Shown here: piece after piece, positions 8,673-38,222 of the stretch
Numbering within the stretch: the first letter of the stretch is position 1
Layout of the letters: each line of letters starts with the position of its first letter
Source of the DNA: Cytophagales bacterium
GTDB taxonomy: Bacteria > Bacteroidota > Bacteroidia > Cytophagales > Cyclobacteriaceae
NCBI GenBank assembly: GCA_020403045.1
Contig: JADBYK010000021.1
Location: 1 to 64,000, forward strand
Direction of reading: 5' to 3'
DNA length: 64,000 nt
The notes under the pieces: model-generated
Told to the model about the DNA's origin: nothing
Seen by the model: only the letters and a program-made list of their open reading frames with translations
Database searches by the model: none
Program-made: the position numbers and the translations under genes

Positions 8673-8814
8673 GGCTGCAAGCCGCAGGCCATATGCAACA
8701 CGCTGCTAGTGCAAATTATGTAATGCGAATGAAGCATTAGCTCGTTTATTGAAAACCTGAAAACAAATTATAACCGATTATAGCCTGCGGCATGAAGCAA
8801 GAAGCCTGTGGCCA
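8673..8814. repeat. 7-nt word arrays (family 1), inverted pair 5' of S23-like gene
   Basis: A reverse-orientation array at 8673-8706 (begins GGCTGCAAGCCGCAGG) and a forward array at 8783-8814 (begins GCCTGCGGCATGAAGC) are built from degenerate 7-nt words of the type GCNNSNT. They can pair with each other and, for the first, with the array at 9196-9230 on the far side of the S23-like gene. Confidence 0.7.
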
Positions 8815-8830
8815 CTAAGCGAAGGTAGCA

Positions 8831-9190
8831 ATGAAAGACTTTAAAAAGCTTTTGATTTGGCAATTGGGAATGGAGATAGTTGATAGCGTATATGGTATAG
8901 TGCCAATGCTTCCGCAAGAGGAGAGATACGGATTACGCTCTCAGATTACCCGGAGCGCTGTATCAATACCTAGTAACATTGCCGAAGGGAGTGCAAAGCG
9001 TAGTACTAAGGAGAAATTAAAGTTTGTGGAGATTAGTCTGGGGTCTGCCTTTGAATTGGAGACCCAAATGTTGGCAGTTGGAAGAAGAAAATGGATAGAA
9101 CAAAAATTGATTGATGAGATCATAGATAATGTGAGAAAGGAGCAGAGTATGATTTCAAAGTTCATTGAGAAACTAGAGAGTGAATTGTAA
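8831..9190 (+). CDS. S23-like four-helix bundle protein, copy 1
   Basis: A 119-aa all-helical protein of the family first seen as ORFs inside 23S rRNA intervening sequences (S23/IVP) and related to the Avd-type bundles. Typical features are LLIWQLGMEIVDSVY, YGLRSQITRSAVSIPSNIAEG and a Lys/Glu-rich C-terminal helix. The molecular role is unknown; nucleic-acid binding has been suggested for the family. Its placement between mraZ and rsmH is unusual, since these are normally adjacent. It is flanked on both sides by family-1 repeat arrays, which suggests insertion as a unit. Confidence 0.88.
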   Translation: MKDFKKLLIWQLGMEIVDSVYGIVPMLPQEERYGLRSQITRSAVSIPSNIAEGSAKRSTKEKLKFVEISLGSAFELETQMLAVGRRKWIEQKLIDEIIDNVRKEQSMISKFIEKLESEL

Positions 9191-9195
9191 CAGTC

Positions 9196-9230
9196 GCTGC
9201 CTGCAGCATGTGGCCTGCAGCCTGTGGCAC
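9196..9230. repeat. 7-nt word array (family 1), 3' of S23-like gene
   Basis: A forward array (GCCTGCAGCATG and following), nearly the same as the one at 8783-8814 and complementary to that at 8673-8706. It ends 14 bp before the rsmH start. Confidence 0.7.
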
Positions 9231-9244
9231 AGAAGGAAGAAGTA

Positions 9245-10147
9245 ATGATGTACCACAAACCGGTAATGTTAGCAGAGTGCATTGAAGCTTTGCAAATAAA
9301 GCCAGACGGAACATACGTAGATGTAACTTTTGGTGGAGGTGGGCACAGTTTAAAGATTCTCGAGCAGTTGACAGAAGGCAGGTTGATTGCTTTTGATCAG
9401 GATGAAGATGCCAAGAGGCAGGCGGATAATATTCAGAGTCGTTCTTTTACATTTTGTCAGGCGAACTTCAGATACATGAAGCAGTATTTGAAGTTGAATG
9501 GAATAACCAAGGTCAATGGTATTCTTGCCGATTTAGGAATTTCATCGCACCAGATTGATTCGGCCGCGCGGGGTTTCTCTACCCGATTTGATGGCCCCTT
9601 GGATATGCGGATGGATAAAAAAGGATCGGTGAGTGCCGCTAAAATATTGAATGAGTACTCAGAGGCAGAGTTGCATAAGATGTTGGGCATTTATGGGGAG
9701 GTGAAAAATGCGAAGACCTTGGCAGGTTTAATCGTAAAGCAGAGAGCTATAAAAAAGTTTGATCGCATAAATGATCTGATCGGTTTGCTGAAGACAGTTG
9801 CTCCACGAGGAAAGGAGTTTAAGTATTTCGCCCAGGTGTTTCAGGCGTTGCGCATCGTAGTGAATGAAGAGATGCAGGCACTTGAAGATTTTTTGCACCA
9901 ATGTGGCGAGGTGATGGAAGTAGGAGGAAGGCTGGTGGTGATGAGTTACCACTCGCTTGAAGACAGACTGGTGAAGAACTACATCAATAGTGGCAAAATG
10001 TATGGCGAAGTGGAGAAAGATTTTTACGGAAACAAAGTAAGGCCTTTTGAGGCGATCAATCGAAAACCGATTGAAGCATCCGAAGAAGAAGTAAATGAAA
10101 ATAACAGAGCAAGGAGCGCAAAATTGAGAGTAGCAGAAAGAGTTTGA
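9245..10147 (+). CDS. rsmH: 16S rRNA (cytosine-1402-N4)-methyltransferase RsmH
   Basis: A SAM-dependent methyltransferase, 300 aa from ATG 9245, which methylates C1402 of 16S rRNA. It carries the N-terminal HKPVMLAECIEAL, the SAM-binding DVTFGGGGHS, LADLGISSHQID, and the C-terminal MSYHSLEDRLVKN and RAKLRVAERV-like ending. The GTG at 9224 lies inside the repeat array, so the ATG at 9245 (or 9248) is preferred. This is the second standard dcw gene, displaced from mraZ by the S23-like insert. Confidence 0.95.
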   Translation: MMYHKPVMLAECIEALQIKPDGTYVDVTFGGGGHSLKILEQLTEGRLIAFDQDEDAKRQADNIQSRSFTFCQANFRYMKQYLKLNGITKVNGILADLGISSHQIDSAARGFSTRFDGPLDMRMDKKGSVSAAKILNEYSEAELHKMLGIYGEVKNAKTLAGLIVKQRAIKKFDRINDLIGLLKTVAPRGKEFKYFAQVFQALRIVVNEEMQALEDFLHQCGEVMEVGGRLVVMSYHSLEDRLVKNYINSGKMYGEVEKDFYGNKVRPFEAINRKPIEASEEEVNENNRARSAKLRVAERV

Positions 10148-10156
10148 TTGGATTTT

Positions 10157-10277
10157 GGCTGCAAGCTGCATGCCACAGGCTGCAAGCTGAGTCACCCAAT
10201 TTTAACCCTTAGAAAATTTGTAGGTAGTAAGTTTTAGAGTAGACCTAACAGCTTGAAGCATGTGGCTTGAGGCTTGT
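10157..10277. repeat. 7-nt word arrays (family 1) between rsmH and ftsL
   Basis: A reverse array at 10157-10191 (GGCTGCAAGCTGCATGCC...) faces a forward array at 10249-10277 (CAGCTTGAAGCATGTGGC...) across about 57 nt of A+T-rich sequence. Together they form a long imperfect inverted repeat in the dcw transcript, ending 8 nt before ftsL. Confidence 0.75.
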
Positions 10278-10285
10278 AACAATAT

Positions 10286-10702
10286 ATGGGAGTTATGTCA
10301 GAAAACAAATTCAGAATAGAGCCACCACAAAAAGCAAATGAGCCACGCGTGAAGCCTGCGGTTCGGGCTAGCGGTAATGGCAAAAGTGTTTTTTCGGGGC
10401 TAGAGAAGCGGCTGAAGTTAGAGAGCTATTTTGAAGATGGATTTCCGGTGCAATACCTGCCCAAAATATTGTTTGTCGTGTTGTTGAGTTTGATCTACAT
10501 CAGTAACACGCACTATGCTGAAAAAACGACCCGTCAAATAGATCGCGCCCAAACGGAAGTTCAAGATCTGCGAGCCGATTATACCACGCTCAAATCGGAC
10601 GTCATGTTTGCAAGTAAACAAAGTGAAGTAGCAAGACGAGTGAAGCCATTAGGATTGAAGGAAAGTTTAAACCCACCTTTTAAAATAGTACTGAAAAACT
10701 AA
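10286..10702 (+). CDS. ftsL: FtsL-like cell division protein
   Basis: A 138-aa bitopic membrane protein with a basic cytoplasmic N-terminus, one transmembrane helix (about ILFVVLLSLIYIS) and a periplasmic heptad-type coiled coil (TTRQIDRAQTEVQDLRADY). This is the layout of FtsL, which joins FtsQ and FtsB to hold FtsW-FtsI at the septum. Sequence identity to classical FtsL is low, so the call rests on topology and on its position between rsmH and ftsI. ATG 10295 is an alternative start. Its stop codon overlaps the ftsI start (TAATG). Confidence 0.82.
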   Translation: MGVMSENKFRIEPPQKANEPRVKPAVRASGNGKSVFSGLEKRLKLESYFEDGFPVQYLPKILFVVLLSLIYISNTHYAEKTTRQIDRAQTEVQDLRADYTTLKSDVMFASKQSEVARRVKPLGLKESLNPPFKIVLKN

Positions 10703-12792: not shown

Positions 12793-14255
12793 TGGCTATT
12801 CTTAAAGACATATTGTACAAAGTACCGATCACTTCTACTTCAGGTAGCACTGATGTGGATATCAATGCGATCTGTTTTGATTCTAGAAAAGTCAAAGAAG
12901 GTTCGTTATTTATTGCTATCAAGGGCACGCAATCAGATGGGCACGGCTTTATTGACAAGGCAGTTTCATTGGGTGCTGTCGCCATTGTCGTGGAAAAACT
13001 TCCAGAATTAATTTCTGACAAAGCTACCTATGTAGCTGTCAAAGATAGCGCTCAAGCGTTGGGAATTATTGCATCCAATTTTTACGGGAACCCTTCCGGA
13101 AAATTAAAATTAGTAGGAGTGACAGGAACCAATGGGAAGACAACTGTTGCCACGTTGCTTTATAAATTATTTTCCTCTTTAGGATATCGCTGCGGAATGT
13201 TGTCCACAGTTGTGAATAAGATTGTGGACAAAGATTTTGCTTCTACGCATACGACCCCGGACCCCATTCAAATAAACGAGCTTCTGGTAAGTATGCTCGA
13301 AGCGGGCTGTACACATTGTTTTATGGAAGTTAGTTCTCACGCAGTTGCACAGGGTCGCATTGCGGGATTGCATTTTGTAGGCGCACTCTTTACCAACATT
13401 ACACATGATCACCTGGATTATCACCGTACGTTCGAGAGTTATATCCGAGCTAAGAAAGGATTTTTTGATGGTTTGTCATCTGATGCTTTTGCGCTAGTTA
13501 ATATCGATGACAAGCGCGGCATGGTGATGCTTCAAAATACCAAAGCGCAAAAGAAAACTTTTGCGTTGAAGAAAATGGCAGATTACAAAGCCAAAATCAT
13601 TACCAATTCGATTGAAGGACTGGAGTTGGAGATTGGTGAACGCAATGTTTGGTTTAAGTTAATTGGTGACTTTAACGCGTATAATCTTCTTACGGTGTAC
13701 GGTGCTGCGTGCTTGATGGGCGAAGACTCAGATACAATTCTTCTCAAACTTTCCGCATTGACTACCGCTCCCGGAAGATTTGAGTTGGTATTACCGGGTT
13801 CCAAATTCACAGCTATTGTTGACTACGCACATACCCCAGATGCGTTAAAGAATGTGTTGGAGACAATCGAACATTTTAGAACCGGTCAAGAGCAAGTAAT
13901 CGCAGTTGTTGGTTGTGGTGGCGATCGTGACAAAACGAAGAGACCGCTCATGGCTGCGGTGGCATGTAAGTATTCCAATAAAGTAATTTTCACTTCTGAC
14001 AACCCAAGGAGTGAAGATCCACTCGAAATCATTAAGGAGATGCAAACCGGTGTTGGGCCAACCGATGCTAAAAAAACATTGGTGATGGTGGACCGAGAGG
14101 AAGCGATCAAAACCGCTTGCATGTTGGCAAAAGAGAAGGACATTATTATCGTGGCCGGTAAAGGGCATGAAAATTATCAGGAAATAAAAGGGGTCAAGCA
14201 TCCATTTGATGATAAAGAAGTGCTTACAAGGATGTTAAAAATGTTTGCGAATTAA
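12792..14255 (+). CDS. murE: UDP-MurNAc-L-Ala-D-Glu:meso-diaminopimelate ligase MurE
   Basis: A cytoplasmic ATP-dependent ligase, 487 aa, adding the third residue of the stem peptide. The P-loop [21 protein letters not shown], the MEVSSHA motif and ITHDHLDYH are clear. The specificity motif DNPR at residues 403-406 (SDNPRSEDP) marks a meso-diaminopimelate enzyme rather than a lysine one. Both ends overlap neighbours by one base (TAATG), indicating coupled translation. Confidence 0.96.
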
Positions 14256-15478
14256 TGCTGTACTATTTATTTGACTATATCGAAAAAAACTTTGATTTCC
14301 CGGGAGCCGGGTTGTTTCAATACATTTCGTTCCGAGCAGGAATGGCCGCTGTTCTTTCCTTATTAATAACGATCACATTCGGAAAAAAATTGATCAACTT
14401 CTTGCGTAAAAAGCAAGTGGGCGAAGACATTCGTGACTTAGGATTAGAAGGTCAATTGCAGAAAAAGGGCACACCTACAATGGGAGGCATTATTATCATC
14501 GCTGCGATCTTGATTCCAACGTTGCTGATGGCAAAGCTCGACAACGTCTATATCATTTTGTTGGTAGCCACCACCATTTGGCTCGGGCTAATCGGATTCT
14601 TAGATGACTACATAAAAGTATTTAAAAAGAATAAAGAAGGATTGGCCGGTCGATTTAAAATTGTCGGTCAAGTTTCCATTGGCTTGATTGTTGGGCTTAC
14701 ACTCTTTTTCAATGACAATGTCGTTATCCGTGAGAAGTCAACTCCCTCTGTCGCAAGCATCGAAATAGCTGCAATTCCCGCTGATGTAAAATCAGAGTAT
14801 GATGTCAAATCAACAAAAACAACGGTGCCTTTTTTAAAGAACAATGAATTTGACTATAGCAGTTTGATATCCTGGTGGAATGCTGATTACACATGGATCG
14901 TCTATACGCTTTTTGTCATATTTATCATCACGGCAGTTTCAAATGGAGCGAATATTACAGATGGCATTGATGGACTTGCAGCTGGAACTTCTGCGATTAT
15001 CGGACTCACGCTTGCGATATTCGCTTACCTCTCAGGTCGTGTTGACTTTAGTACGTACCTGAATATTATGTACATCCCTAACTTGGGAGAGCTGGTAATT
15101 TTCTGTACTGCTTTTGTGGGTGCGTGCCTTGGCTTTCTATGGTACAACTCTTACCCGGCACAAGTATTCATGGGTGACACCGGAAGTTTATCGATGGGAG
15201 GAATCATTGCGGTTTTAGCTCTAGCTGTAAGAAAGGAATTGATGATCCCGCTTTTATGTGGAATCTTCTTGGTGGAGTTGGTTTCGGTAATGATGCAGGT
15301 GACCTACTTTAAATACACCAAAAAGAAATATGGCGAAGGCAGAAGAATATTACTGATGTCTCCCCTTCACCATCACTACCAGAAAAAGCAAATTCATGAA
15401 TCTAAGATTGTAACGCGATTTTGGATTGTGGGAATACTATTGGCTATTGTTAGTCTGGCAACATTAAAGTTAAGATGA
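14255..15478 (+). CDS. mraY: Phospho-MurNAc-pentapeptide transferase MraY
   Basis: An integral membrane enzyme, 407 aa, that makes lipid I on undecaprenyl phosphate. It shows [19 protein letters not shown], the [12 protein letters not shown] motif, [12 protein letters not shown] and the C-terminal SPLHHHYQ. About ten transmembrane segments are visible. A hydrophilic insertion of roughly 50 residues (around [16 protein letters not shown] to NNEFDYSSL) makes it longer than the E. coli enzyme, as is usual in Bacteroidota. It overlaps murD by four bases (ATGA). Confidence 0.96.
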
Positions 15479-16860
15479 GCAAAAGAGTAGTCATATTAGG
15501 ATCAGGCGAAAGCGGAACAGGCGCAGCTATTTTAGCGAAAGCGAAGGGCTATGAGGTTTTTGTTTCTGATCAGGGAACTATCAAAGATCAATATAAGAAT
15601 GAGTTGACCAAAAGTGGTATTTCATTTGAAGAGGGACAACATACATTGGAAAAAATTACCAACGCATCATTAATAATAAAAAGCCCGGGGATTCCCGATA
15701 AAGCAGAGGTTATTAAAAAGGTGAAAGCTGCAGGGATTGAAATTATTGATGAGATTGAATTTGCATTTCGCTATTTGAAGGGAAAAGTAATTGCTATTAC
15801 TGGCACGAATGGAAAGACTACAACCACCTTATTAACGTATCACCTATTGAAGTCGGCTGGAGTTAACGTTGCGTTGGCAGGTAATGTGGGAGAGAGTCTT
15901 GCTCGGAAAGTAGCAACGGCTCATTATGATTGGTACGTGATTGAGATTAGTAGTTTTCAACTGGACGGAACGAAAACATTTCGACCAGATATTGGAATTC
16001 TCTTGAATATTACCCCTGATCATTTGGATCGCTACGAGTACCAAATGCAGAATTATATCAATTCAAAGTTTCGCTTAGTTCAATCGATGAGCTCTTCTGG
16101 ATCTTTTATTTATTACTCAGACGATGCAGTAATAGAAAAAGAGATGGTAAATAAATCAATTTCACCTGTTAAAGTAAGGGTGTCATTAAAATCAAATCCG
16201 AGTGTACCGGTTTATTTTAATGGAAATGAAATGACATTTTCTTTGAATGGCAAATCTTTCTCATTTACACAGGCACAAACCACGTTGAAGGGGCCGCATA
16301 ATTTGATCAATACGATGTCTGCCGTTTCTGCCGCTGTGTTAGCTGGGATTTCGATAGAGAATATTGGAATGGCTTTAAAGACATTTGTTAATGCGCCACA
16401 TCGACTCGAATCAGTTGCAACGATCAATGGTGTTGAATTTGTGAATGATTCCAAAGCGACCAATGTTGATTCAGTGGTTTATGGTCTAGGAAGTTACAAG
16501 GGTCCTCTCGTTTGGATTGCCGGAGGCATTGACAAGGGAAATGATTACACGTTAATTGAGGATCAGGTAAAAGAAAAAGTGCGTGTGTTGATTTGTTTGG
16601 GTAAGGACAACGAGAAACTAAAAAAGGCTTTTAGTGGCAAAGTGAAAGAAATTTACGAAACGCAAAGCGTAAAGGAATTGGCACAACTAGCACTACGCGT
16701 TTCAGAAAAAGGAGATGTTGTTTTGTTATCACCGGCTTGTGCAAGTTTTGACCTTTTTAAGAATTATGAAGATCGTGGCGCACAATTTAGGAATGCAGTA
16801 CTCGAGTTGAAAAATAGTATTGAAGATAAAAGAAGTCAGAATTTAGAAGTCAGAATATAG
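15475..16860 (+). CDS. murD: UDP-MurNAc-L-alanine:D-glutamate ligase MurD
   Basis: An ATP-dependent ligase, 461 aa, adding D-Glu to UDP-MurNAc-L-Ala. It shows an N-terminal Rossmann start ([14 protein letters not shown]), the P-loop [35 protein letters not shown] and [12 protein letters not shown]. The final ten or so residues ([11 protein letters not shown]) are encoded by a 7-nt-word repeat array, so the natural C-terminus has probably been replaced or extended by repeat growth. One base separates its stop from the next ATG. Confidence 0.95.
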
Positions 16861-17256
16861 AATGGCCAAAAGAGAACCCGCAAAGTCGTTTAGAGATTTG
16901 ATCGTGTGGCAAAAAGCACATCAGCTTGCTCTTGGCGTATATAAAATGACAAAGTCGTTTCCAAAGGAAGAGTTGTATGGTTCAACGTCACAAGTGAAAA
17001 GATCATCAGTGTCTGTGGCAGCAAACATTGCTGAGGGCTTTAAGAAAAAAGGTAAGGCTGATAAACTTAGATTCTTTAACATCGCTCAAGGTTCTTTGTC
17101 TGAAACAGAATACTATCTGATTTTAGCTAACGACTTAGAATATTTTAATACTGACTTATTGATTGAAGACGTGATTGAAGTAGGTAGGCTTTTAGAATCA
17201 TACATGAGTGCGTTTGAAAACTAATTCTAACTTCTGAATTCTGACTTCTAAATTCT
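16831..17256. repeat. Inverted 7-nt word arrays (family 2) enclosing S23-like copy 2
   Basis: The left array at 16831-16862 and the right array at 17225-17256 are inverted relative to each other and contain a perfect 19-bp inverted repeat: AGAATTTAGAAGTCAGAAT at 16838-16856 and its complement at 17238-17256. The enclosed 363 bp are exactly the S23-like gene, with its start and stop sitting at the inner edges. In RNA this would be a stem with the whole ORF as loop. Confidence 0.85.
16862..17224 (+). CDS. S23-like four-helix bundle protein, copy 2
   Basis: A 120-aa member of the same four-helix bundle family as the protein at 8831-9190, clearly diverged from it. Recognisable parts are FRDLIVWQKAHQLALGVYKM, FPKEELYGSTSQVKRSSVSV and AANIAEGFKKKG. 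It lies between murD and ftsW, genes that are usually contiguous. The inverted repeat around it is the layout described for S23 ORFs inside rRNA intervening sequences, here placed in a protein-coding operon. Function unknown. Confidence 0.88.
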   Translation: MAKREPAKSFRDLIVWQKAHQLALGVYKMTKSFPKEELYGSTSQVKRSSVSVAANIAEGFKKKGKADKLRFFNIAQGSLSETEYYLILANDLEYFNTDLLIEDVIEVGRLLESYMSAFEN

Positions 17257-17265
17257 TTTGATAAA

Positions 17266-18453
17266 ATGAAATTAAGTAAAATAAAGGAATGGGCTGATAA
17301 AAACCTGCAAGGCGACAGGGTTATTTGGGCTGTTGTTTTTGCTCTATCGCTTTTTAGCATTTTGGTTGTATACAGTTCTATTGGAACGTTGGCATACAAA
17401 AGAACGGCCAGTACCGAGTCGTATTTACTGAAGCACACTTTCATGGTGTTCTTAGGTTTAGGTGCAATGTGGGTTGCTCATAAAATAGACTATCGCTATT
17501 ATTCTAAAATATCCCGATTGGCGTTGTGGGTAAGTGTTCCCCTATTAATCTATACGTTCACCAATGGAACCACCATCAACGAAGCAGCTAGGTGGATTAC
17601 GTTGCCAATCATTAACACTTCATTTCAGCCATCAGATTTTGCGAGTTTGGCATTGATTATCAACCTCGCCAGTATGCTTTCCAAAAAGCAACAAAACATT
17701 GATGATGTAAAGGAAGCCCTCATCCCAATGCTAATATGGTGTGGCGTGATATGCGGGTTGATTGCTCTCACCAATCTATCGACCGCCATGTTGCTTTTCG
17801 CAACGTGTATGTTAGTAATGTTTATCGGTCGCGTACCGGTAAAGTATTTAGCGATGCTTGTTTTAGTTGGATTGTTGGCGGGGACGGTAGCATTGATGTT
17901 TGGAACACGGAGGGTTACTGCACTCAATCGTATCACGGCATTTGTTAGTGGAGCAGAACTTCCTTTTCAAGCGAAGCACGGACGCATAGCAGTGGCCACG
18001 GGTGGTGTCTTTGGGAAGGGGCCGGGTAATAGTGACCAACGGAATATTTTGCCGCATCCTTATTCTGATTTCGTCTATGCAATTGTGATTGAAGAATATG
18101 GAATGATTGGAGGAGTGATCGTTCTTGCATTGTATTTGGTTTTACTCCATCGAGGAATGAAAGCTGCTTATAATAGTGAGCGTGCGTTCGGAGGCCTGTT
18201 GTCGGCAGGTCTAAGTTTTGATTTGGTCTGTCAGGCTATGGTTAATATGGGAGTAGTAGTTGGGTTGGGCCCGATTACAGGGCAACCACTTCCTTTAATC
18301 AGTATGGGCGGCACCGCTATGGTTTTCACCGGTTTATCTGTTGGAATCATTTTGAGCGTGAGCCGTGGGGAACAAGAAGAAAACTGGGGACAAACCAGTG
18401 CTTCGAAAGAAGTTGTAGGTGAAGACAAAGATTTAGAAGCAAAAGCAGCATAG
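17266..18453 (+). CDS. ftsW: Peptidoglycan glycosyltransferase FtsW
   Basis: A SEDS-family polytopic membrane protein, 395 aa, polymerising glycan strands at the septum together with FtsI. Around ten transmembrane helices are visible, with FQPSDFASLAL, the loop containing GKGPGNSDQRNILPHPYSDF, and the C-terminal GLGPITGQPLPLISMGG. These conserved signatures and the dcw position make FtsW rather than RodA the right call. The C-terminal tail after the last helix is charged and cytoplasmic. Confidence 0.94.
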   Translation: MKLSKIKEWADKNLQGDRVIWAVVFALSLFSILVVYSSIGTLAYKRTASTESYLLKHTFMVFLGLGAMWVAHKIDYRYYSKISRLALWVSVPLLIYTFTNGTTINEAARWITLPIINTSFQPSDFASLALIINLASMLSKKQQNIDDVKEALIPMLIWCGVICGLIALTNLSTAMLLFATCMLVMFIGRVPVKYLAMLVLVGLLAGTVALMFGTRRVTALNRITAFVSGAELPFQAKHGRIAVATGGVFGKGPGNSDQRNILPHPYSDFVYAIVIEEYGMIGGVIVLALYLVLLHRGMKAAYNSERAFGGLLSAGLSFDLVCQAMVNMGVVVGLGPITGQPLPLISMGGTAMVFTGLSVGIILSVSRGEQEENWGQTSASKEVVGEDKDLEAKAA

Positions 18454-18454
18454 T

Positions 18455-18598
18455 AATTTGAAGATGAGACAATTTGAAAATTTGAAAATAGACTCTGTTA
18501 ACTGATTTCTTTAAAAACATATGTTACTAGTAAACCGACTGAAGACAAAACGATTAACCAACTAAATTCTATATTCTAAATTCTGACTTCTAACTTCT
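18455..18598. repeat. Word-repeat arrays between ftsW and murG
   Basis: 18455-18490 is an 8-nt word array (AATTTGAA repeated, interrupted by GATGAGAC). 18561-18598 is a reverse-orientation family-2 array (ACTAAATTCTATATTCTAAA and on). No gene lies between. The murG start codon falls at the end of the second array. Confidence 0.7.
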
Positions 18599-19734
18599 TG
18601 AATTCAAAACAACCATATCGCATCATTATTAGTGGAGGAGGCACAGGAGGACACATCTTTCCTGCGTTGGCTATTGCTAATGAGTTTAAAAGACGATATG
18701 CTGACGCTGAAATTCTCTTTGTGGGTGCCGAAGGAAAAATGGAGATGACCAAAGTGCCAGAAGCTGGATATAAAATAATCGGCTTGTGGATAAGTGGGTT
18801 ACAACGAAAACTAACGATTTCAAACCTTTCGTTTCCATTCAAGTTAATTGCTAGCTATTTGAAAGCCGGAAATATTATAAAAAGTTTTAAGCCGAATGTA
18901 GTGATTGGTACTGGCGGCTACGCGAGCGGCCCTATTATGCTGGCGGCTTCGAAAGCACGAGTAACTTCAGTGATCCAAGAGCAAAACTCTTATGCGGGCT
19001 TAACCAATAAACAATTGGCACACAAAGCAGCTAAGATTTGTGTGGCGTATGAAGGCATGGAGAAATATTTTCCAGCTTCGAAAATAGTATTCACTGGAAA
19101 TCCCGTAAGAAAAGACATTATCGATTTGGATTCAAAACGTGAAAGGGCGTTGAGTCATTTTGCCTTTACTAGCTCCGATCGTACGCTCCTCATTTTAGGT
19201 GGAAGCCTTGGTGCACGAACCATTAATGAAAGTATTTTGGCTGGAATAGACAAATTGATTGATTCTCAGATTCAAGTCATTTGGCAAACTGGCAAACTGT
19301 ATTATGAGGGCATCAAGGCACAAGTCGAAAACAAAGATCTTAGAAGGATTCGCGTAGTTGACTTCCTGAAACAAATGGATTTGGCTTATGCAGCTTCAGA
19401 CGTTGTTATTTCGCGCGCAGGTGCATTAGCGATATCTGAATTGTGTATTGCCAAAAAGCCCTGCCTACTAGTTCCTTCGCCCAATGTTGCGGAAGATCAT
19501 CAGACAAAAAACGCGATGGCGTTGGCTAATGAAGGCGCTGCATTGATGGTAAAAGATTCAGAAGCAAAAGAGTCTCTCGTTAGCGAGGTGTTAAAATTGA
19601 TTTATGATGAACAGTTGAGTGAGAAGCTGAGCGTCAATATTGGCAAGTGGGCAAAGCCACATGCTACTGAAGAGATTGTAAATGAAATTGAAAATCTGAT
19701 TGGAGTTAAGCATGAAGTTAGAGCAATACGATAG
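18598..19734 (+). CDS. murG: UDP-GlcNAc:lipid I N-acetylglucosaminyltransferase MurG
   Basis: A GT28 glycosyltransferase, 378 aa, that converts lipid I to lipid II at the inner face of the membrane. It shows ISGGGTGGHIFPALAIAN, VIGTGGYASGP, IQEQNSYAG, LILGGSLGA and the C-terminal VISRAGALAISEL with PNVAEDHQTKNA. The start must be TTG at 18598, because no ATG precedes the conserved N-terminus. That TTG lies at the very end of a family-2 repeat array, so the repeat has supplied the start region. It overlaps murC. Confidence 0.94.
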   Translation: MNSKQPYRIIISGGGTGGHIFPALAIANEFKRRYADAEILFVGAEGKMEMTKVPEAGYKIIGLWISGLQRKLTISNLSFPFKLIASYLKAGNIIKSFKPNVVIGTGGYASGPIMLAASKARVTSVIQEQNSYAGLTNKQLAHKAAKICVAYEGMEKYFPASKIVFTGNPVRKDIIDLDSKRERALSHFAFTSSDRTLLILGGSLGARTINESILAGIDKLIDSQIQVIWQTGKLYYEGIKAQVENKDLRRIRVVDFLKQMDLAYAASDVVISRAGALAISELCIAKKPCLLVPSPNVAEDHQTKNAMALANEGAALMVKDSEAKESLVSEVLKLIYDEQLSEKLSVNIGKWAKPHATEEIVNEIENLIGVKHEVRAIR

Positions 19735-21097
19735 CGTTTACTTCTTGGGCATAGGGGGCATTGGCATGAGTGCCATTGCTCGTTGGTTCAAGCATAAAGG
19801 CTTGCGAGTGGCTGGCTATGACCGTACACCTACTCCACTTACGCACGAACTATTGGAAGAAGGAATGGAAATTCATTTTGAAGATAAGATTGAATTTATT
19901 CCAGGATATATTAGTAAGGAAAGAACGTTGGTGGTTTTTACACCTGCCATCCCAAAGAACCATGTAGAACATGCTTATTTAAAAGATCTGGGATTCACGA
20001 TTCTAAAACGCTCAGAAGTGTTGGGACTGTTAACGAAGAGCTACAAGACAGTTGCGGTGGCGGGAACGCACGGAAAAACCACTACCTCTTCCTTGATCGC
20101 TCATATTCTAAAATCAGCGGGCGTAAATATGGTTGGATTTCTGGGAGGCATTACCACCAACTACGATTCAAATTTGGTCATGGAGGGCGAAGTCAATGAT
20201 AAGACAATAGTAGTAGTTGAAGCGGATGAATTCGACCGTTCTTTTCTGCGCTTATTTCCAGAGATAGCTGTGGTTACGTCTGCGGATGCCGATCACTTGG
20301 ATATTTACGGAGATCATTCAAGCATGTTAAAATCATTTAGGGATTTCATCAAGCAGATCAACGCAAAAGGAAGTCTGATTATACATGAATCAATCGATTC
20401 ACTCACAGAAGGGATTTCAGTTTCGAAAGAAACATATGGCATGAGCCGGGGACAGTTTTTTGCCGGCAATATTACCCCGACTGGTCGGGGCGGATTTTTT
20501 GAATTTGATCTTCACGGCTTTGGAAAGAAGGTTGAGAAAATTCAGCTCGGTGTCCCTGGTTTTCATAACATGGAAAATGCAATCGCTGCTACGCTCGTTG
20601 CATTAAAATTGGGAATAAGTGAAACACATATTCGCCAAGCGCTTCAGTCTTTTAAAGGTGTGAAGCGGAGATTTGAGTTTGTCATCAAACGCGATGATCT
20701 GGTTTACATTGATGATTATGCACATCACCCAACGGAGATTGAAGCATTTCTTACTTCGCTAAAGTCAATGTACGCAGGAAAAAAATTGACAGTAATTTTT
20801 CAGCCACATCTTTTTACGCGCACACGAGATTTTGCAGAAGGATTTTCAAAGAGTCTGAGTATTGCCGATGAGGTTTTACTGATGGACATCTATCCGGCTC
20901 GCGAGGAACCTATACCGGGCGTCACTTCTGATATGCTGTTCAAAAATATCACCAGCTCGGTGAAGATTCGCTGTAACAAGGGGGATGTGTTACAAAAACT
21001 GGAAGATTTGGAAGTAGAAGTATTAGCAACAGTAGGAGCGGGTGACATCGATACGTTTGTGAAACCGATCAAGGATATGTTGTTGAGACGGAGTTAA
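19712..21097 (+). CDS. murC: UDP-MurNAc:L-alanine ligase MurC
   Basis: An ATP-dependent ligase, 461 aa from ATG 19712, adding the first stem-peptide residue. It carries FLGIGGIGMSAIARW, the P-loop VAGTHGKTTTSSLIA, ADEFDRSFL, SADADHLDIYG, YAHHPTEIEA and FQPHLFTRT. The ATG at 19712 lies inside the 3' end of murG (23-bp overlap in another frame) and gives the expected N-terminus; a TTG at 19700 would add four residues. No ddl follows, as is normal for Bacteroidota dcw clusters. Confidence 0.95.
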   Translation: MKLEQYDSVYFLGIGGIGMSAIARWFKHKGLRVAGYDRTPTPLTHELLEEGMEIHFEDKIEFIPGYISKERTLVVFTPAIPKNHVEHAYLKDLGFTILKRSEVLGLLTKSYKTVAVAGTHGKTTTSSLIAHILKSAGVNMVGFLGGITTNYDSNLVMEGEVNDKTIVVVEADEFDRSFLRLFPEIAVVTSADADHLDIYGDHSSMLKSFRDFIKQINAKGSLIIHESIDSLTEGISVSKETYGMSRGQFFAGNITPTGRGGFFEFDLHGFGKKVEKIQLGVPGFHNMENAIAATLVALKLGISETHIRQALQSFKGVKRRFEFVIKRDDLVYIDDYAHHPTEIEAFLTSLKSMYAGKKLTVIFQPHLFTRTRDFAEGFSKSLSIADEVLLMDIYPAREEPIPGVTSDMLFKNITSSVKIRCNKGDVLQKLEDLEVEVLATVGAGDIDTFVKPIKDMLLRRS

Positions 21098-21100
21098 GGG

Positions 21101-21268
21101 CATCAAGCTACATGCCGCAAGCCACATGCAGCTTGATGTTTAGTAAGGAGTTGAGTATTTGATGAAAAAATTGAATTGTAAATTGTAGTAAAGAGAGACC
21201 GATAAAAACCATAAAAAATAGTAAGTTTTGATAAGCAGCTTGCAGCATGAAGCATGAGGCTTGAAGCC
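21101..21268. repeat. 7-nt word arrays (family 1) between murC and ftsQ
   Basis: A reverse array at 21101-21138, itself hairpin-forming (CATCAAGCT ... AGCTTGATG), and a forward array at 21235-21268 (GCAGCTTGCAGCATGAAGCA...) flank about 96 nt of A+T-rich sequence with no gene. They form an inverted pair. Confidence 0.75.
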
Positions 21269-21290
21269 AAGTAAACACTGTGAAAGAACA

Positions 21291-22052
21291 ATGAAGCCAA
21301 AGTTCACCATACGAAAAGAGATAAAAATTGCACTAGTGCTGCTCGCGCTTTCCTTTTTGATCGCTTTTAGCGAACGAAAACGTGGGGGGTCGGTGTGCAA
21401 AGATATTGTGATTGAATTGGACAACTTGAATGAAAATCATTTTTTAGATGAGGCCGATGTATTGCAACTGGTGGAGGGAAGTGGCGAGCCTATTAAGGGT
21501 GTTGGTATTAGTCGAATTAAACTGAAGGAGATTGAAAAGAAATTGAAATACGATAAGCATATTTTGGACGCTGAGCTTTTTGGTGATCTTAAAGGAAACT
21601 TAATCGTCAATGTTGAATTGAGAAGACCGATTGCTCGCATCGTGCAAAATGATGCGCCTGACGCCTACATAGCAGAAGATGGTGTCGTCATGCCCGTTTC
21701 GGAAAAATATACTTCTCGGGTGGTATTGATAAGTGGAGCTGTTAAACAATTGCTGGAAAGCGAAGACTTAAATAGATCTGAAGAGGGAAAGCAACTTCTT
21801 GAAATGATCGAATATATCAATGAAGACAAATTCTGGAAAGCGCAGGTGGCGCAGTTAGATATTGCAAAGAATGGTAAGATTTCAATTTACCCACAGGTGA
21901 CAGGACAGTTGGTTGAATTCGGAAAGCCGGAGAATATTGAAATGAAATTCAAGAAGCTCATGGTATTCTATAAGGAAATTTTACCCACACGCGGGTGGAC
22001 GAGGTATGAACGTGTGAATTTGGAATATGAGGGGCAAGTGATTGCCGAATGA
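21291..22052 (+). CDS. ftsQ: Cell division protein FtsQ
   Basis: A bitopic protein of 253 aa with a short basic cytoplasmic start, one transmembrane helix (IALVLLALSFLIAFS), then a POTRA-like segment (DADVLQL-type motif, here DEADVLQLVEG, and ELFGDLKGNLIVNVELRRPIARI) and the FtsQ/DivIB beta domain. It scaffolds FtsL and the rest of the divisome. The ATG at 21291 is chosen over the upstream TTG at 21261, which is inside a repeat array. The position between murC and ftsA supports the call. Confidence 0.9.
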   Translation: MKPKFTIRKEIKIALVLLALSFLIAFSERKRGGSVCKDIVIELDNLNENHFLDEADVLQLVEGSGEPIKGVGISRIKLKEIEKKLKYDKHILDAELFGDLKGNLIVNVELRRPIARIVQNDAPDAYIAEDGVVMPVSEKYTSRVVLISGAVKQLLESEDLNRSEEGKQLLEMIEYINEDKFWKAQVAQLDIAKNGKISIYPQVTGQLVEFGKPENIEMKFKKLMVFYKEILPTRGWTRYERVNLEYEGQVIAE

Positions 22053-22055
22053 AAA

Positions 22056-22197
22056 AGAATATAGAAGTCAGAATTTAGAATATAGAATTTGGAATAGATA
22101 ATGAGTAAATATAAAATATTAAAGGCAAGTTACATCGAGTTTGAACTAGTTCTTAAAAGAATGATTCTGACTTCTAACTTCTATATACTAAATTCTT
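22056..22197. repeat. 7-nt word arrays (family 2) between ftsQ and ftsA
   Basis: A forward array at 22056-22098 (AAGAATATAGAAGTCAGAAT...) and a reverse array at 22163-22197 (GATTCTGACTTCTAACTTC...) face each other over about 64 nt. No gene is present. Confidence 0.75.
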
Positions 22198-22215
22198 AAT
22201 TAAATGAAAAAATAA

Positions 22216-22229
22216 ACAACCACTAAACA
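22216..22229 (+). promoter_or_regulatory. Leader motif shared by ftsA and ftsZ
   Basis: ACAACCACTAAACA lies 11 nt before the ftsA ATG and recurs exactly at 23667-23680, 8 nt before the ftsZ ATG. In an A-rich leader without Shine-Dalgarno sequence this could be a translation enhancer or protein-binding site; that is inference. Confidence 0.5.
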
Positions 22230-22240
22230 TACAGAACATC

Positions 22241-23557
22241 ATGGAACACGAAAAAATAGTAGTAGGGCTCGACATCGGTACAACAAAAATTGTTGCGATT
22301 GTAGGTCGCCAGAATGAGTTCGGCAAGCTCGAAGTATTAGGCATGGGCAAAGCTGAGTCAGAAGGCGTAATAAAGGGAATTGTAACCAACATTGATAAAA
22401 CTGTTTTTGCCATTGAGAAGGCTGTTAAAGAAGCCAGCGATATGTCGGGAATAGATATTGGTGTGGTGAACGTAGGCATTGCGGGACAACACATTCGCAG
22501 TTCCATACACCATGGCAGTATCACCCGCAGTTCGAAAGAAGACGAGGTAAGCATCGAAGATGTAAATCGCCTGACAGAAGACATGTATCGAATTGTCATC
22601 CCACCGGGCAGTGAGATCATTCATGTGATGCCACAAGACTATACAGTTGACTATGAAGAGGGCATCAAAGATCCTGTCGGCATGAGTGGGGTAAAGCTAG
22701 AAGCTGACTTCCATATCATCACGGCACAAACCAGTGCGATTAACAATATAAATAAGTGTGTACGCAGAGCTGGCCTTGAAATACAAGATTTGATTTTGGA
22801 GCCATTGGCGTCAAGTATCGCGGTGCTTAGCGAAGACGAAAAGGAAGCAGGCGTTTGTTTGATTGACATTGGTGGAGGCACTACAGACATCGCTATTTTC
22901 CACGATAGTATTATCAGACATACGGCTGTAATTCCTTTTGGAGGAAATATTTTAACCACAGATATTCAGCATGGCCTGATGGTGATGGCAAAGCAAGCAG
23001 AACAGTTGAAGACACGATTTGGCAAGGCGATTGCCGAAGAGGCAAGTCCCAACGAAATCGTTTCTATTCCAGGAATTAGAAACCGTACGGCCAAAGAAAT
23101 TTCGGTAAAGAACCTTTCCAACATCATACAAGCCCGAATGGAAGAGGTGATCGAAATGGCGCATGCAGAAATCATCAGCTCAGGTTACGAGAAGAGATTA
23201 GCTGGCGGTATTGTAATCACAGGTGGCGGTTCACAACTAAATTCGTTAAAGCAGTTGGTAGAGTATATGACAGGCATGGATGCACGCATTGGCTATCCTA
23301 ATGAACATCTTGGCAAAAGTAAACTGGAAATAGTGAAGAGCCCGATGTATGCAACGGCCGTTGGCCTAGTGCTATCTGGATTCCGTTCGTTGGATGAACG
23401 TGAAGAACGGTACAAGGAAGCGAAAGAAAATCAGAACCAAAAGACAGTGAAAGTGAAAAAGGAAAAGCAAAATCCAGCGTCTGATTTCTTTTCGAACATA
23501 CTTAACAAAACGAAAGGATTGTTAATTGATGATCTGAGTGATAAGAATGAATACTAA
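22241..23557 (+). CDS. ftsA: Cell division protein FtsA
   Basis: An actin-like ATPase, 438 aa, that tethers FtsZ to the membrane. Phosphate-binding motifs VVGLDIGTTKIVAIVG and CLIDIGGGTTDIAIF and the adenosine motif GGIVITGGGSQLNSL are present, along with the FtsA-specific 1C domain around IDIGVVNVGIAGQHI. The C-terminus ends in an amphipathic membrane-targeting helix after a charged linker (SDFFSNILNKTKGLLIDDL). The gene is preceded by a repeat-filled gap and a leader motif shared with ftsZ. Confidence 0.95.
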   Translation: MEHEKIVVGLDIGTTKIVAIVGRQNEFGKLEVLGMGKAESEGVIKGIVTNIDKTVFAIEKAVKEASDMSGIDIGVVNVGIAGQHIRSSIHHGSITRSSKEDEVSIEDVNRLTEDMYRIVIPPGSEIIHVMPQDYTVDYEEGIKDPVGMSGVKLEADFHIITAQTSAINNINKCVRRAGLEIQDLILEPLASSIAVLSEDEKEAGVCLIDIGGGTTDIAIFHDSIIRHTAVIPFGGNILTTDIQHGLMVMAKQAEQLKTRFGKAIAEEASPNEIVSIPGIRNRTAKEISVKNLSNIIQARMEEVIEMAHAEIISSGYEKRLAGGIVITGGGSQLNSLKQLVEYMTGMDARIGYPNEHLGKSKLEIVKSPMYATAVGLVLSGFRSLDEREERYKEAKENQNQKTVKVKKEKQNPASDFFSNILNKTKGLLIDDLSDKNEY

Positions 23558-23565
23558 AACTCTGG

Positions 23566-23645
23566 GCTACATGCCGCATGCTTCAAGCCACAAGCTGTTC
23601 GGAACTACCGCGCTGCTTGCAGCATGTGGCCTGCAGCTTGAGGCC
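23566..23645. repeat. 7-nt word arrays (family 1) between ftsA and ftsZ
   Basis: A reverse array at 23566-23597 (GCTACATGCCGCATGCTTCA...) and a forward array at 23612-23645 (CGCTGCTTGCAGCATGTGGC...) are separated by 14 nt and form a compact hairpin. Confidence 0.8.
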
Positions 23646-23688
23646 AATAATAAAAACTAAAAAAATACAACCACTAAACACCATAATC

Positions 23689-25344
23689 ATGTTTGAACCA
23701 GTAACAGGATACAAATTTGATCTCCCCAAACATCACAAGTCAATCATTAAGGTGATTGGTGTGGGTGGCGGAGGTAGCAACGCAGTCAATCATATGTTTC
23801 GACAAGGAATTAAAGATGTCGAATTTGTGGTAGCAAACACCGATTTGCAGGCGCTGAACAGCAGTCCGGTTCCTTATAAACTACAACTCGGAGTAAACCT
23901 AACTGAAGGCCTTGGATGTGGAGCTAACCCAGAGGTAGGGCGCGCAGCTGCCTTGGAAAGCAAAGATCAAATCCGCGAAATGCTGGCAGGAACGAAAATG
24001 GTTTTTGTGACGGCTGGAATGGGTGGTGGCACTGGAACCGGAGCCGCACCTGTCATCGCAAAAATTGCAAAGGACATGGATATCCTGACAGTTGGTATCG
24101 TCACCGTTCCTTTCTCTTTTGAGGGAAAGAAAAAACTAGGCCAGGCGGAGATTGGGATCGAATCGTTCCGCAGCAGCTGCGATACGGTACTTGTTATATT
24201 GAACGACAAGCTTCGCGAGATCTATGGAAATTTGTCCATCGGTCAGGCATTTGGTGAAGCAGACAATGTTCTAACCACAGCTGCAAAAGGGATTGCGGAG
24301 ATAATAACCTTAGCAGGATATGTGAACGTTGACTTTCAAGATGTTCGCACAGTAATGTTGAATGCAGGTGCTGCGGTGATGGGTACAGCTGAGACAAGAG
24401 GCGATACCAGGGCAATTAAAGCGGCACAGCAGGCACTGGCTTCTCCGTTGTTGGATAGCCATGACATCATGGGCTCAAAGAAAATTTTGCTTTCCATTAT
24501 TTCTGGAGAGGAAGCTGAGTTACAGATGGACGAGCTCACAACTATTACAGAATATATTCAACAACAGACTGGTGACGAAGCGGAAGTTATTTTTGGTCAT
24601 GGTGTCGACAGTGCGTTGGGCGATCGAATTCGCGTGACTGTCATTGCTACTGGATTTGATACCGTTCAGAAAACAGTTAAGAAGGAAGATAAAAAAGTGC
24701 ACGATCTGGATAAATCGCAAATTCCTCTATTTGGAGCTGTCGATAATTCCGTCAATCAACGTGGGGCTGACTTGGAACTAAAATTCAAGGATAACACTGG
24801 CACACAAAGCGCGGAAACGATTAGTACACCACCTCCTGCTGAGGTTCCTGTGGAAATTCCAATCGTTCAAAAGCCGTTTGACAGACCTATCCTAAAGACA
24901 GAGGAAAAGGCAGAGAAAGAATTGCCTAAGCAAGAAGAACGAGCTTACACATTCACGTTGTTTGACAAAACTGAAACTACGGACGCGCACCAAGATGACG
25001 AAGGCGAGGAAAGCCTGTTTGCCGATGATGATGAGTTTCAGATTGGAAGAGAGATTTCCGCAGATCAGGTGATCAATGATGATGGCTTGATGGAGGTACG
25101 CAAAACGAGGGCGCGTTTGGAGCAGCAAGCCAAAGAGCGAAGAGAGAAATTGAAATCCAATCGCAAGCAAGAAATGACAAAAGAAGAATTCAATGAAAAG
25201 TGGACGCTACCAGCTTACTTACGCAGAGGTGTGAAGATGGACAATGTGCCGCATTCTTCAGAACAGTTTATTTCACGATACAATTTAAATGATGATAATA
25301 ATTTGTTGGGCAATAATAAGTTTTTGCATGATAATGTGGATTAG
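23689..25344 (+). CDS. ftsZ: Cell division protein FtsZ
   Basis: The tubulin-like GTPase that builds the Z-ring, 551 aa from ATG 23689. GVGGGGSNAVNHM, VANTDLQAL, the signature GMGGGTGTGAAP and FSFEGKKK are clear. The globular core ends around VTVIATGFD and is followed by a long acidic linker (about 170 residues), typical of Bacteroidota. A conserved tail with WTLPAYLRRGVKMDN probably binds FtsA. The 37 codons upstream in frame are repeat array, so the ATG with the shared leader motif is the true start. Confidence 0.97.
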   Translation: MFEPVTGYKFDLPKHHKSIIKVIGVGGGGSNAVNHMFRQGIKDVEFVVANTDLQALNSSPVPYKLQLGVNLTEGLGCGANPEVGRAAALESKDQIREMLAGTKMVFVTAGMGGGTGTGAAPVIAKIAKDMDILTVGIVTVPFSFEGKKKLGQAEIGIESFRSSCDTVLVILNDKLREIYGNLSIGQAFGEADNVLTTAAKGIAEIITLAGYVNVDFQDVRTVMLNAGAAVMGTAETRGDTRAIKAAQQALASPLLDSHDIMGSKKILLSIISGEEAELQMDELTTITEYIQQQTGDEAEVIFGHGVDSALGDRIRVTVIATGFDTVQKTVKKEDKKVHDLDKSQIPLFGAVDNSVNQRGADLELKFKDNTGTQSAETISTPPPAEVPVEIPIVQKPFDRPILKTEEKAEKELPKQEERAYTFTLFDKTETTDAHQDDEGEESLFADDDEFQIGREISADQVINDDGLMEVRKTRARLEQQAKERREKLKSNRKQEMTKEEFNEKWTLPAYLRRGVKMDNVPHSSEQFISRYNLNDDNNLLGNNKFLHDNVD

Positions 25345-25438
25345 AACAGAAGTTAGAATCGAGAAGTCAGAATATAGAATTAGCTATTTTGTAGCGAATA
25401 CTTCTGACTTCTGTATTCTGAATTCTAACTTCTAACTA
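25343..25438. repeat. 7-nt word arrays (family 2) after ftsZ
   Basis: A forward array at 25343-25382 (begins AGAACAGAAGTTAGAATC) abuts the ftsZ stop codon. A reverse array at 25398-25438 follows after 15 nt. They share complementary runs such as AGAAGTTAGAAT and form a hairpin. Confidence 0.75.
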
Positions 25439-25445
25439 AAGGCAT

Positions 25446-38212: not shown

Positions 38213-38222
38213 TTTGCTTGTA

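What the first reader, a model, noticed from the sequence alone, without database searches (positions are those of the whole stretch)
8673..25438. 7-nt-periodic degenerate word arrays fill the gaps of the dcw operon as inverted pairs
Almost every real gap in the cluster carries arrays of degenerate 7-nt words. Family 1 (GCAGCTT, GCAGCAT, GAAGCAT...) lies at 8673, 8783, 9196, 10157, 10249, 21101, 21235, 23566 and 23612. Family 2 (AGAAGTC, AGAATTT, AGAATAT...) lies at 16831, 17225, 18561, 22056, 22163, 25343 and 25398. Most gaps hold one array followed by its reverse complement, giving a stem with a spacer, so the orientation pattern is not random. Other word families with the same 7-nt step occur at 38223 and 59021. 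The families are unrelated in sequence but share period and layout, which suggests a common generating mechanism or a shared RNA function such as operon processing or gap-specific stability. I know of no described element with this definition.
Basis: partly seen in the sequence, partly recalled or inferred. Interest (0 to 1): 0.75.

Follow-up and report, generated by a model that had tools for sequence, protein, structure and literature searches.

The report
Repeat-word-bounded four-helix protein elements
The odd 7-letter repeat arrays between cell-division genes look like the paired ends of small gene-carrying elements found across bacteria, each with its own repeat word, and this links a long-unexplained class of bacterial 7-letter repeats to a small ring-forming protein previously known from split ribosomal RNA genes.

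Summary
The 7-nt arrays are real and non-random, with a lag-7 peak in gaps and none in ORFs. All 10 IVP genes of this genome have a word array upstream and 9 on both sides (eight period 7, one period 8). Of 219 IVP elements from many phyla and one archaeon, 198 have at least one arm of period 7, 8 or 10. Both arms were found in 138, and their periods agree in 134. Arms are inverted, pair as RNA, are G-rich 5' and C-rich 3', and stay paired as orthologs diverge. Words track the protein, even between phyla (r 0.30, p 0.001). Both 23S rRNA insertions found have heptad arms. In a cyanobacterium with STRR-like arrays in 81 of 194 gaps, 52 of 127 arrays reuse words beside its own IVP genes. I read the dcw arrays as IVP elements and ORF-less or decayed derivatives: a generalised rRNA intervening sequence. 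RNA-stem function and word recognition are inferred; the means of movement is unknown. Contrary: two IVP-bearing genomes lack stray period-7 arrays, and four IVP-free genomes have a few.

The parts
8831..9190 (+). IVPa: 119-aa 23S_rRNA_IVP / four helix bundle protein gene between mraZ and rsmH
   Evidence: Pfam PF05635 E 1.6e-30, 105.9 bits (cut-off 33.8); TIGR02436
8668..8700 (+). Outer 5' arm of the IVPa element, GCAGC/GCAAGCC words (period 7)
   Evidence: score 0.60; inverted to 9194-9230 (20 of 29) and to 8783-8812 (18 of 22)
8783..8812 (-). Additional GCATGAA/GCCTGTG array upstream of the IVPa start codon, same orientation as 9194-9230
   Evidence: sequence; score 0.60
9194..9230 (-). 3' arm of the IVPa element
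   Evidence: period-7 score 0.74
10156..10281 (.). ORF-less inverted pair, GCAGC-type words (10156-10190 and 10248-10281), rsmH-ftsL gap
   Evidence: RNA fold z -3.03
16831..16862 (+). 5' arm of the IVPb element (AGAAGTC/AGAATTT, 14-nt alternation); overlaps the murD 3' end
16862..17224 (+). IVPb: 120-aa 23S_rRNA_IVP / four helix bundle protein gene between murD and ftsW
   Evidence: PF05635 E 4.2e-36; PDB relatives 2gsc and 2rld
17219..17260 (-). 3' arm of the IVPb element, inverted AGAA words; contains the IVPb stop codon
   Evidence: score 0.80; pairs with the 5' arm over 28 bp in the fold (z -2.49)
18453..18492 (+). 8-nt TTTGAAAA array, one half of a composite ftsW-murG gap
   Evidence: period 8, 0.72
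18556..18603 (-). AGAATT-word array in the ftsW-murG gap, without a same-word partner
21099..21271 (.). GCAGC-type arrays 21099-21135 and 21232-21271 in the murC-ftsQ gap; the gap is only 5-50 nt in 19 relatives
   Evidence: full-length fold closes by the arms but weakly (z -1.47)
22051..22202 (.). ORF-less inverted pair, AGAAGTC words (22051-22105 and 22163-22202), ftsQ-ftsA gap; shared with G011
   Evidence: RNA fold z -2.53
23565..23646 (.). ORF-less inverted pair, GCAGC-type words (23565-23598 and 23612-23646), ftsA-ftsZ gap; absent from G011
   Evidence: RNA fold z -2.69
25345..25439 (.). ORF-less inverted pair, AGAAGTC words (25345-25382 and 25397-25439), downstream of ftsZ
   Evidence: RNA fold z -5.11
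38212..38289 (.). ORF-less inverted pair, ATAGTCG/ATAGTCC words, resembling those of the IVP gene at G000:C88 (L003; share 0.38 and 0.27)
   Evidence: RNA fold z -5.12
59020..59054 (-). Lone array of ACGAACA words
   Evidence: 0.71; no match to an IVP word set of this genome (best share 0.07)

Best explanation
The arrays are the two arms of a small, horizontally spread genetic element that generalises the 23S rRNA intervening sequence: a G-rich 5' array of about 4-5 degenerate 7-nt (or 8-, 10-nt) words, a gene for a four-helix-bundle protein (IVP, PF05635; a pentameric ring in the solved X. campestris relative, per PMC4990558), and a C-rich 3' array that is the reverse complement of the first. 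SHOWN: association of gene and arms, inversion, shared period, RNA pairing potential, protein-word covariation between loci and between phyla, the same architecture in two 23S rRNA insertions, in-situ decay and presence/absence at orthologous dcw gaps. INFERRED: (1) in the transcript the arms form a stem that isolates the IVP frame in a loop, so insertion between co-transcribed genes, or in an rRNA loop, is tolerated, probably with RNase III trimming as published for rRNA IVS; (2) the protein ring recognises its own word, roughly one word per subunit; (3) ORF-less pairs in dcw are derivatives, some decayed in place and some arriving as units. The enzyme that moves the DNA is unknown; only the IVP domain was found in the protein, so host machinery is assumed.
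For: Both gene-carrying gaps hit PF05635. All 10 IVP genes of the genome have an upstream word array and 9 have both arms (eight period 7, one period 8). 114 unique IVP ORFs from this genome and relatives: lag-7 matches of 15 or more of 21 in 51 (up) and 48 (down), against about 8% of 626 other ORFs. 219 elements: up arm 171, down arm 165, both 138, either 198; period agrees in 134 of 138; up arm G>C 153 of 171, down arm C>G 140 of 165; in-register matching beats word-order shuffles in 108 of 134. Duplex energy -35.4 kcal/mol for own arms, -13.6 for arms of other elements, -32.7 word-order shuffled. Orthologous sites below 70% protein identity: own arms pair better than crossed arms in 48 of 54 pairs. 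Protein identity correlates with word similarity at different loci (r 0.227, p 0.001) and between phyla (r 0.301, p 0.001, 2105 pairs). IVPs inside LSU rRNA have heptad arms, 2 of 2 found. dcw presence/absence, truncated IVP and ORF-less states at one site. IVP flanked by same-direction genes on both sides in 92 of 104, against 122 of 200 control triplets.
Against: No transposition event, target duplication or recombinase was seen; the closest same-genome pair (L243/L254) lies beside an ISL3 transposase gene that is duplicated with it. IVP presence does not predict stray arrays: G033 (8 IVP) and G034 (7 IVP) have period-7 arrays in 0 of 101 sampled gaps (G033 has 2 of period 8), while four IVP-free genomes have 7 of 162 (1.6 expected). 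21 of 219 elements have neither arm at the threshold. In-register pairing is only modestly better than word-order shuffles in energy (99 of 134), and closely related orthologs (70% identity or more) show no own-arm advantage (7 of 14). 75 of 127 cyanobacterial arrays matched no IVP flank of that genome by my criterion. In the broad set the co-direction is weaker (51 of 74). One window pair folds only weakly (z -1.47). Many elements in the counts are orthologs and not independent.
Confidence: 0.68

Rival explanations
1. Heptad arrays arise by themselves (polymerase slippage, a hypothesis for bacterial heptamers quoted in PMC4692102) and are neutral safe harbours; IVP genes merely land in them.
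For: Array words differ, by eye, at three orthologous gaps of two Sphaerospermopsis genomes whose flanking matches are 87-96% identical; arrays far outnumber IVP genes in that cyanobacterium (81 of 194 sampled gaps; 8 IVP matches in the genome); a few arrays exist in IVP-free genomes (7 of 162).
Against: Slippage does not predict inverted partners, matching periods of the two arms (134 of 138), G-rich 5' and C-rich 3' polarity relative to the gene, or words that follow the protein between phyla.
Confidence: 0.13
2. Chromosomal regulatory elements: the IVP binds its word arrays in operon mRNAs and controls their stability or translation as a host function, rather than being selfish.
For: Stems in intercistronic positions and gene co-direction; published speculation for STRR hairpins on transcript stability or translational coupling (passages of PMC2670836).
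Against: Positions are not conserved: 9 of 20 genomes have an empty murE-mraY gap, and occupants and words vary; IVP genes are sporadic (10 of 190 sampled genomes of an alphaproteobacterial class over the cut-off) and decay in place.
Confidence: 0.12
3. DNA-level terminal repeats of an unrecognised transposon in which arms are bound as DNA and pairing in RNA is incidental.
For: Inverted-terminal-repeat layout, ORF-less MITE-like copies with similar words in the same operon, truncated intermediates.
Against: No target duplication or transposase seen in the window elements; strand polarity and preference for co-directional sites, occurrence in rRNA and co-variation of arms point to RNA.
Confidence: 0.15

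Closest known systems
23S rRNA intervening sequences (IVS) with an S23p/IVP ORF, e.g. in Leptospira and Coxiella (PMC4990558: abstract, outline and Introduction read)
   Same: Same protein family, an ORF between complementary ends that form a stem, replaces or extends a loop of a transcript. Two rRNA-embedded IVPs examined here (L296, L344) have the same kind of heptad arms.
   Different: The window elements lie between protein-coding genes, not in rRNA. The heptad-word nature of the arms and its link to the protein are not mentioned in the parts I read.
Cyanobacterial STRR heptamers and Xanthomonas GGGAATC / Nostoc GGGGA(C/T)T repeats (PMC4692102: passages and Discussion; PMC2670836: passages)
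   Same: Intergenic 7-nt tandem words of unknown function; in Xanthomonas often as convergent pairs (70 in Xcc, 75 in Xac per PMC4692102). Cyanobacterial array words were found flanking IVP genes here.
   Different: Window words are more degenerate and mostly paired; PMC4692102 reports only a few paired repeats in Nostoc. Xanthomonas itself was not testable here.
REP/REPIN-RAYT elements (PMC3116915: search listing only; otherwise recalled)
   Same: A chromosomal gene flanked by inverted short repeats, with many gene-less inverted pairs in intergenic gaps.
   Different: The encoded protein is PF05635, not the recalled Y1 transposase; the repeats are word arrays and not a fixed palindrome.
Avd of diversity-generating retroelements (recalled; PMC10053308 seen in listing only)
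   Same: Related family: bAvd PF22296 24.5 bits (cut-off 40) and NCBIfam Avd 23 bits (cut-off 80) for IVPb.
   Different: Both scores are below the cut-offs.
TRAP ring and its spaced triplet repeats (recalled analogy)
   Same: A protein ring proposed to read one short repeat per subunit.
   Different: Unrelated protein, pentamer not 11-mer; binding not shown here.

Membership tests
23S rRNA IVS element | Encodes an S23p/IVP (PF05635) protein | tested here: met
   for both window genes; the ORF-less pairs lack it
23S rRNA IVS element | Ends complementary, forming a stem around the ORF | tested here: met
   IVPb fold z -2.49 with a 28-bp outer stem; in 131 of 134 elements the own arms pair better than swapped arms
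23S rRNA IVS element | Located within rRNA | tested here: not met
   Window elements lie between protein genes; among related loci L296 and L344 do lie in LSU rRNA
23S rRNA IVS element | Excised from the transcript by RNase III | not testable with these tools
   Reported for rRNA IVS in PMC4990558 (abstract, Introduction)
Cyanobacterial STRR | Tandem 7-bp words in intergenic DNA | tested here: met
   for the window genome, for Sphaerospermopsis; window words are degenerate
Cyanobacterial STRR | Occurs in filamentous cyanobacteria | tested here: inconclusive
IVP-word units occur in both groups
IS element / MITE | Transposase gene between, or terminal repeats matching, an IS | tested here: not met
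   The two ORFs between arms in the window are PF05635; no IS-end comparison was made; the one IS association seen is L243/L254
REPIN/RAYT | Y1 REP-associated transposase (recalled definition) | tested here: not met
   The encoded protein is PF05635
DGR Avd | Score over the Avd family cut-off | tested here: not met
   NF033474 23 bits against 80; PF22296 24.5 against 40
DGR Avd | Neighbouring reverse transcriptase and template/variable repeat | not tested
   No dedicated search was made

The most novel reading that the evidence does not exclude
IVP elements are a distinct, cross-domain class of selfish RNA-centred element whose protein ring and repeat word co-evolve as a lock and key, one word per subunit. 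23S rRNA intervening sequences, cyanobacterial STRRs, the Xanthomonas heptamers and the general excess of 7-nt repeats in bacterial genomes are all their footprints, and words can be swapped wholesale at a standing site.
Probability: 0.4. Interest if true: 0.93.

Novelty: new variant of a known kind. Interest (0 to 1): 0.86.

Why it matters
The heptamer excess in bacteria and the STRRs of cyanobacteria are described as of unknown function (PMC4692102 Discussion, PMC2670836 passages), and S23p as without known function (PMC4990558 Introduction). Tying them together turns both into one testable system: a small ring protein with many natural variants, each with its own candidate recognition word next to its gene. 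It would also explain why intergenic gaps of essential operons such as dcw vary so much between relatives. In my nine searches of the held library no listed title or abstract start made this link, and a term search for S23 found nothing in PMC4692102 and PMC4679880. Most subscription journals and all preprints are outside that library.

Tried and rejected
Chance or composition: rejected by dinucleotide shuffles and by other lags. A dcw-specific signal: rejected because arrays occur at sampled gaps elsewhere in the genome and at IVP genes elsewhere. 'Exactly 7 nt': relaxed, since periods 8 and 10 form matched pairs too. Reading-frame idea (non-multiples of 3 put stops in all frames): arms have three-frame stops more often than shuffles (up arm sense 0.53 against 0.37) but on both strands alike, and a few period-6 and period-9 cases exist, so I did not adopt it. 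Recent self-copying: the best same-genome pair proved to be duplicated with an ISL3 transposase gene. Target duplication at murE-mraY: filled G010 against empty G011 gives no clear duplication (read by eye). IVP presence as predictor of stray arrays: inconsistent. Phage records: no match to IVPb by tblastn.

The 626 control ORFs include neighbours of IVP genes, which inflates that control. Arm detection needs about 3-4 words, so the words-per-arm figure is biased upwards. A first fold of 21098-21246 (z -0.60) had cut off most of the second arm; the full stretch was refolded on checking.
Full report
OBSERVATION. They are not chance: lag 7, with 14 and 21, is in excess in intergenic DNA of the window (z 7.0), of a 299-kb sample of the same genome (z 4.3; lag 6 there is 3.8) and of the dcw regions of 20 same-genus genomes (z 13.1), with no lag-7 excess in ORFs. 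With a four-unit array score of 0.65 or more, 26 of 221 gap regions qualify at period 7 against 1.2 in shuffles; period 8 gives 4 against 1.2, period 5 12 against 8.8, and periods 10, 11 and 13 give 1, 1 and 0.

Two of the gaps contain small genes. 8831-9190 and 16862-17224 encode 23S_rRNA_IVP proteins (PF05635, E 1.6e-30 and 4.2e-36; four helix bundle protein TIGR02436). IVPa sits in GCAGC-type words, IVPb between AGAAGTC-type words in opposite orientations. The genome has ten PF05635 matches over the cut-off. All ten have a word array upstream and nine have one on each side, eight of period 7 and one (L004) of period 8; L001 has an upstream arm only, with no more than a word or two downstream. 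The words differ from gene to gene. At IVPa the inverted partner of the 3' arm is the outer array at 8668; the inner one at 8783 has the same orientation as the 3' arm.

STATISTICS OF THE ASSOCIATION. Of 39 genomes (this one and 38 relatives), 32 have a match over the cut-off. From this genome and fetched loci of relatives I collected 114 unique IVP ORFs. Flank lag-7 identity of at least 15 of 21 occurs in 51 (upstream) and 48 (downstream) of 114, lag 14 in 29 and 40, lag 8 in 7 and 10, other lags in 5 or fewer; the control of about 626 other ORFs gives 8-9% at lag 7. In 70 of 114 both arms score 0.55 or more; similarity is 0.556 inverted, 0.140 direct, 0.151 to other elements' arms; 64 of 70 are more alike inverted than direct, and the own partner ranks first in 33 of 70. 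The two arms have the same period in 134 of 138 (7/7 in 110, 8/8 in 21, 10/10 in 3). The up arm is G-rich over C (153 of 171) and the down arm C-rich (140 of 165). Arms have a median of 4.6-4.7 words. Hosts with at least one arm include Cyanobacteria, Acidobacteriota, Planctomycetota, Chloroflexi, Clostridia, Proteobacteria, a Treponema, a Saccharibacterium and a Methanophagales archaeon.

THE WORD BELONGS TO THE PROTEIN. Between different loci of the genus and order, word similarity rises with IVP identity (cosine about 0.17 below 30% identity, about 0.38 above 50%; Mantel-type r 0.227, p 0.001). The same holds for pairs from different phyla: 72 elements, 2105 pairs, r 0.301, p 0.001; the opposite-strand control is flat except in the top bin. 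The window's IVPb (AGAAGTC/AGAATTT) shares words at cosine 0.74-0.75 with Acidobacteria IVPs only 52-55% identical to it. Between-phylum protein identities of 60% or more (76 pairs), and DNA identity of about 71-77% between phyla over 250-400 nt of the IVP frame, suggest horizontal spread.

RNA PAIRING. The IVPb unit folds with a 28-bp outer stem made by the two arms (z -2.49). ORF-less pairs at 10150, 22055, 23560, 25340 and 38210 fold with z -2.5 to -5.1; the pair at 21096-21274 closes by its arms but weakly (z -1.47, 16 of 200 shuffles as good). Over 134 elements the arms' duplex energy is -35.4 kcal/mol, against -13.6 for swapped arms and -32.7 for word-order-shuffled partners; in-register matching exceeds word-order shuffles in 108 of 134. 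At orthologous sites, own arms pair better than crossed arms in 48 of 54 pairs below 70% protein identity but in only 7 of 14 above it. Arms therefore turn over together. Selection for a stem, and selection of both arms for the same protein, would both give this.

NATURAL HISTORY IN dcw. At murE-mraY, 9 of 20 genomes (this one included) have no insert (4 nt or less), 4 have an IVP element, 1 has an IVP element with an internal deletion, 3 have an ORF-less pair and 3 have 22-42 nt. At murD-ftsW, 6 of 20 readable genomes carry IVPb-type elements, G018 and G003 have solo arrays, and the rest are short. At mraZ-rsmH, G009, G024, G013 and G005 keep only parts of IVPa, read by eye, between similar arms. 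The GCAGC pairs at murC-ftsQ and ftsA-ftsZ were seen only in the window genome; the murC-ftsQ gap is 5-50 nt in 19 relatives, while at ftsA-ftsZ G012 and G003 have longer gaps, G012's with another word. So ORF-less pairs seem to arise both by decay in place and by new arrival.

rRNA AND STRR LINKS. Of 35 distinct loci examined with Rfam, two IVP genes lie inside LSU rRNA: L296 (Azospirillum lipoferum plasmid) and L344 (a genome drawn from the class of a Bosea). L344 has heptad arms on both sides at 0.83. In L296 the downstream arm scores 0.80; its upstream heptads were not caught by the score and were read by eye. Such insertions are the classical intervening sequences, reported to be cut out by RNase III without religation (PMC4990558, abstract and Introduction read). 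In Sphaerospermopsis, period-7 arrays occur in 81 of 194 sampled gaps. Of 127 arrays, 52 share at least 30% exact 7-mers with the flank of one of its own IVP genes, against 2 of 127 shuffled. STRRs are described as mostly 7-bp repeats of unknown function that can form hairpins (PMC2670836, passages read). Xanthomonas GGGAATC heptamers occur as 70 and 75 convergent pairs (PMC4692102, passages and Discussion read), and the solved IVP structure 2gsc is XCC0516, from X. campestris (PMC4990558); I could not read that locus here. Two Sphaerospermopsis genomes carry different words at three orthologous gaps whose flanking matches are 87-96% identical (read by eye; one gap holds masked bases and one about 1 kb of extra sequence), so words can be replaced at a standing site. 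Twelve IVP elements of the genus and order share a flank with the thiolase / acyl-CoA dehydrogenase gap of L001, with several different words.

MECHANISM AND LIMITS. I commit to a generalised intervening-sequence element: arms form an RNA stem that shields the host transcript from the insert, the IVP ring reads its own word, and gene-less derivatives persist and may be mobilised. Co-direction with both neighbours (92 of 104, and 51 of 74 in the broad set, against 122 of 200 and 97 of 204 control triplets) fits insertion in transcribed gaps. Stem formation in vivo, RNase III cutting, word recognition and the mobilising enzyme are all unproven. Contrary facts: no clear target duplication; one apparent duplication goes with an ISL3 transposase gene; G033 and G034 have IVPs but no period-7 arrays in 101 sampled gaps; four IVP-free genomes have them in 7 of 162 gaps; 21 of 219 elements lack detectable arms; 75 of 127 cyanobacterial arrays remain unassigned. 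Counts include orthologs and are not independent.

VERDICT. It is not dcw-specific, and nothing seen makes regulation its main role. It is best filed as a new variant of the rRNA intervening-sequence kind, living between protein genes, with protein-specific word arrays as arms.

Noticed in passing
L001, L045, L046, L048, L049, L050, L052, L058, L065, L110, L111, L121: Twelve IVP elements linked by similar flanking proteins to the thiolase / acyl-CoA dehydrogenase gap of L001 carry several different words: an insertion hot spot or repeated turnover.
   Followed up: partly
window 15475-16860: The murD reading frame ends inside the 5' arm of the IVPb element, so the array seems to have supplied a C-terminal tail and stop codon.
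   Followed up: no
L243 and L254 (Nostoc genome G041): Two copies of an IVP gene plus 3' heptad array are duplicated together with the 3' end of an ISL3-type transposase gene (84% identity over 691 nt).
   Followed up: partly
window 18453-18603: The ftsW-murG gap joins an 8-nt TTTGAAAA array to a 7-nt AGAATT array; the same composite is in G011. It may be the scar of two different elements.
   Followed up: no
L195, L202, L212 versus L199, L200, L213: Gut Bacteroidales IVPs use a similar GAAGTTA/GGAGTTA core at period 10 in some and 8 in others, as if core and spacer evolve separately.
   Followed up: no
L248: A Methanophagales archaeal contig carries an IVP gene with 7-nt arrays on both sides.
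   Followed up: no
G018 contig 36, 116500-123000 (L111): Three IVP genes lie within about 5 kb.
   Followed up: no
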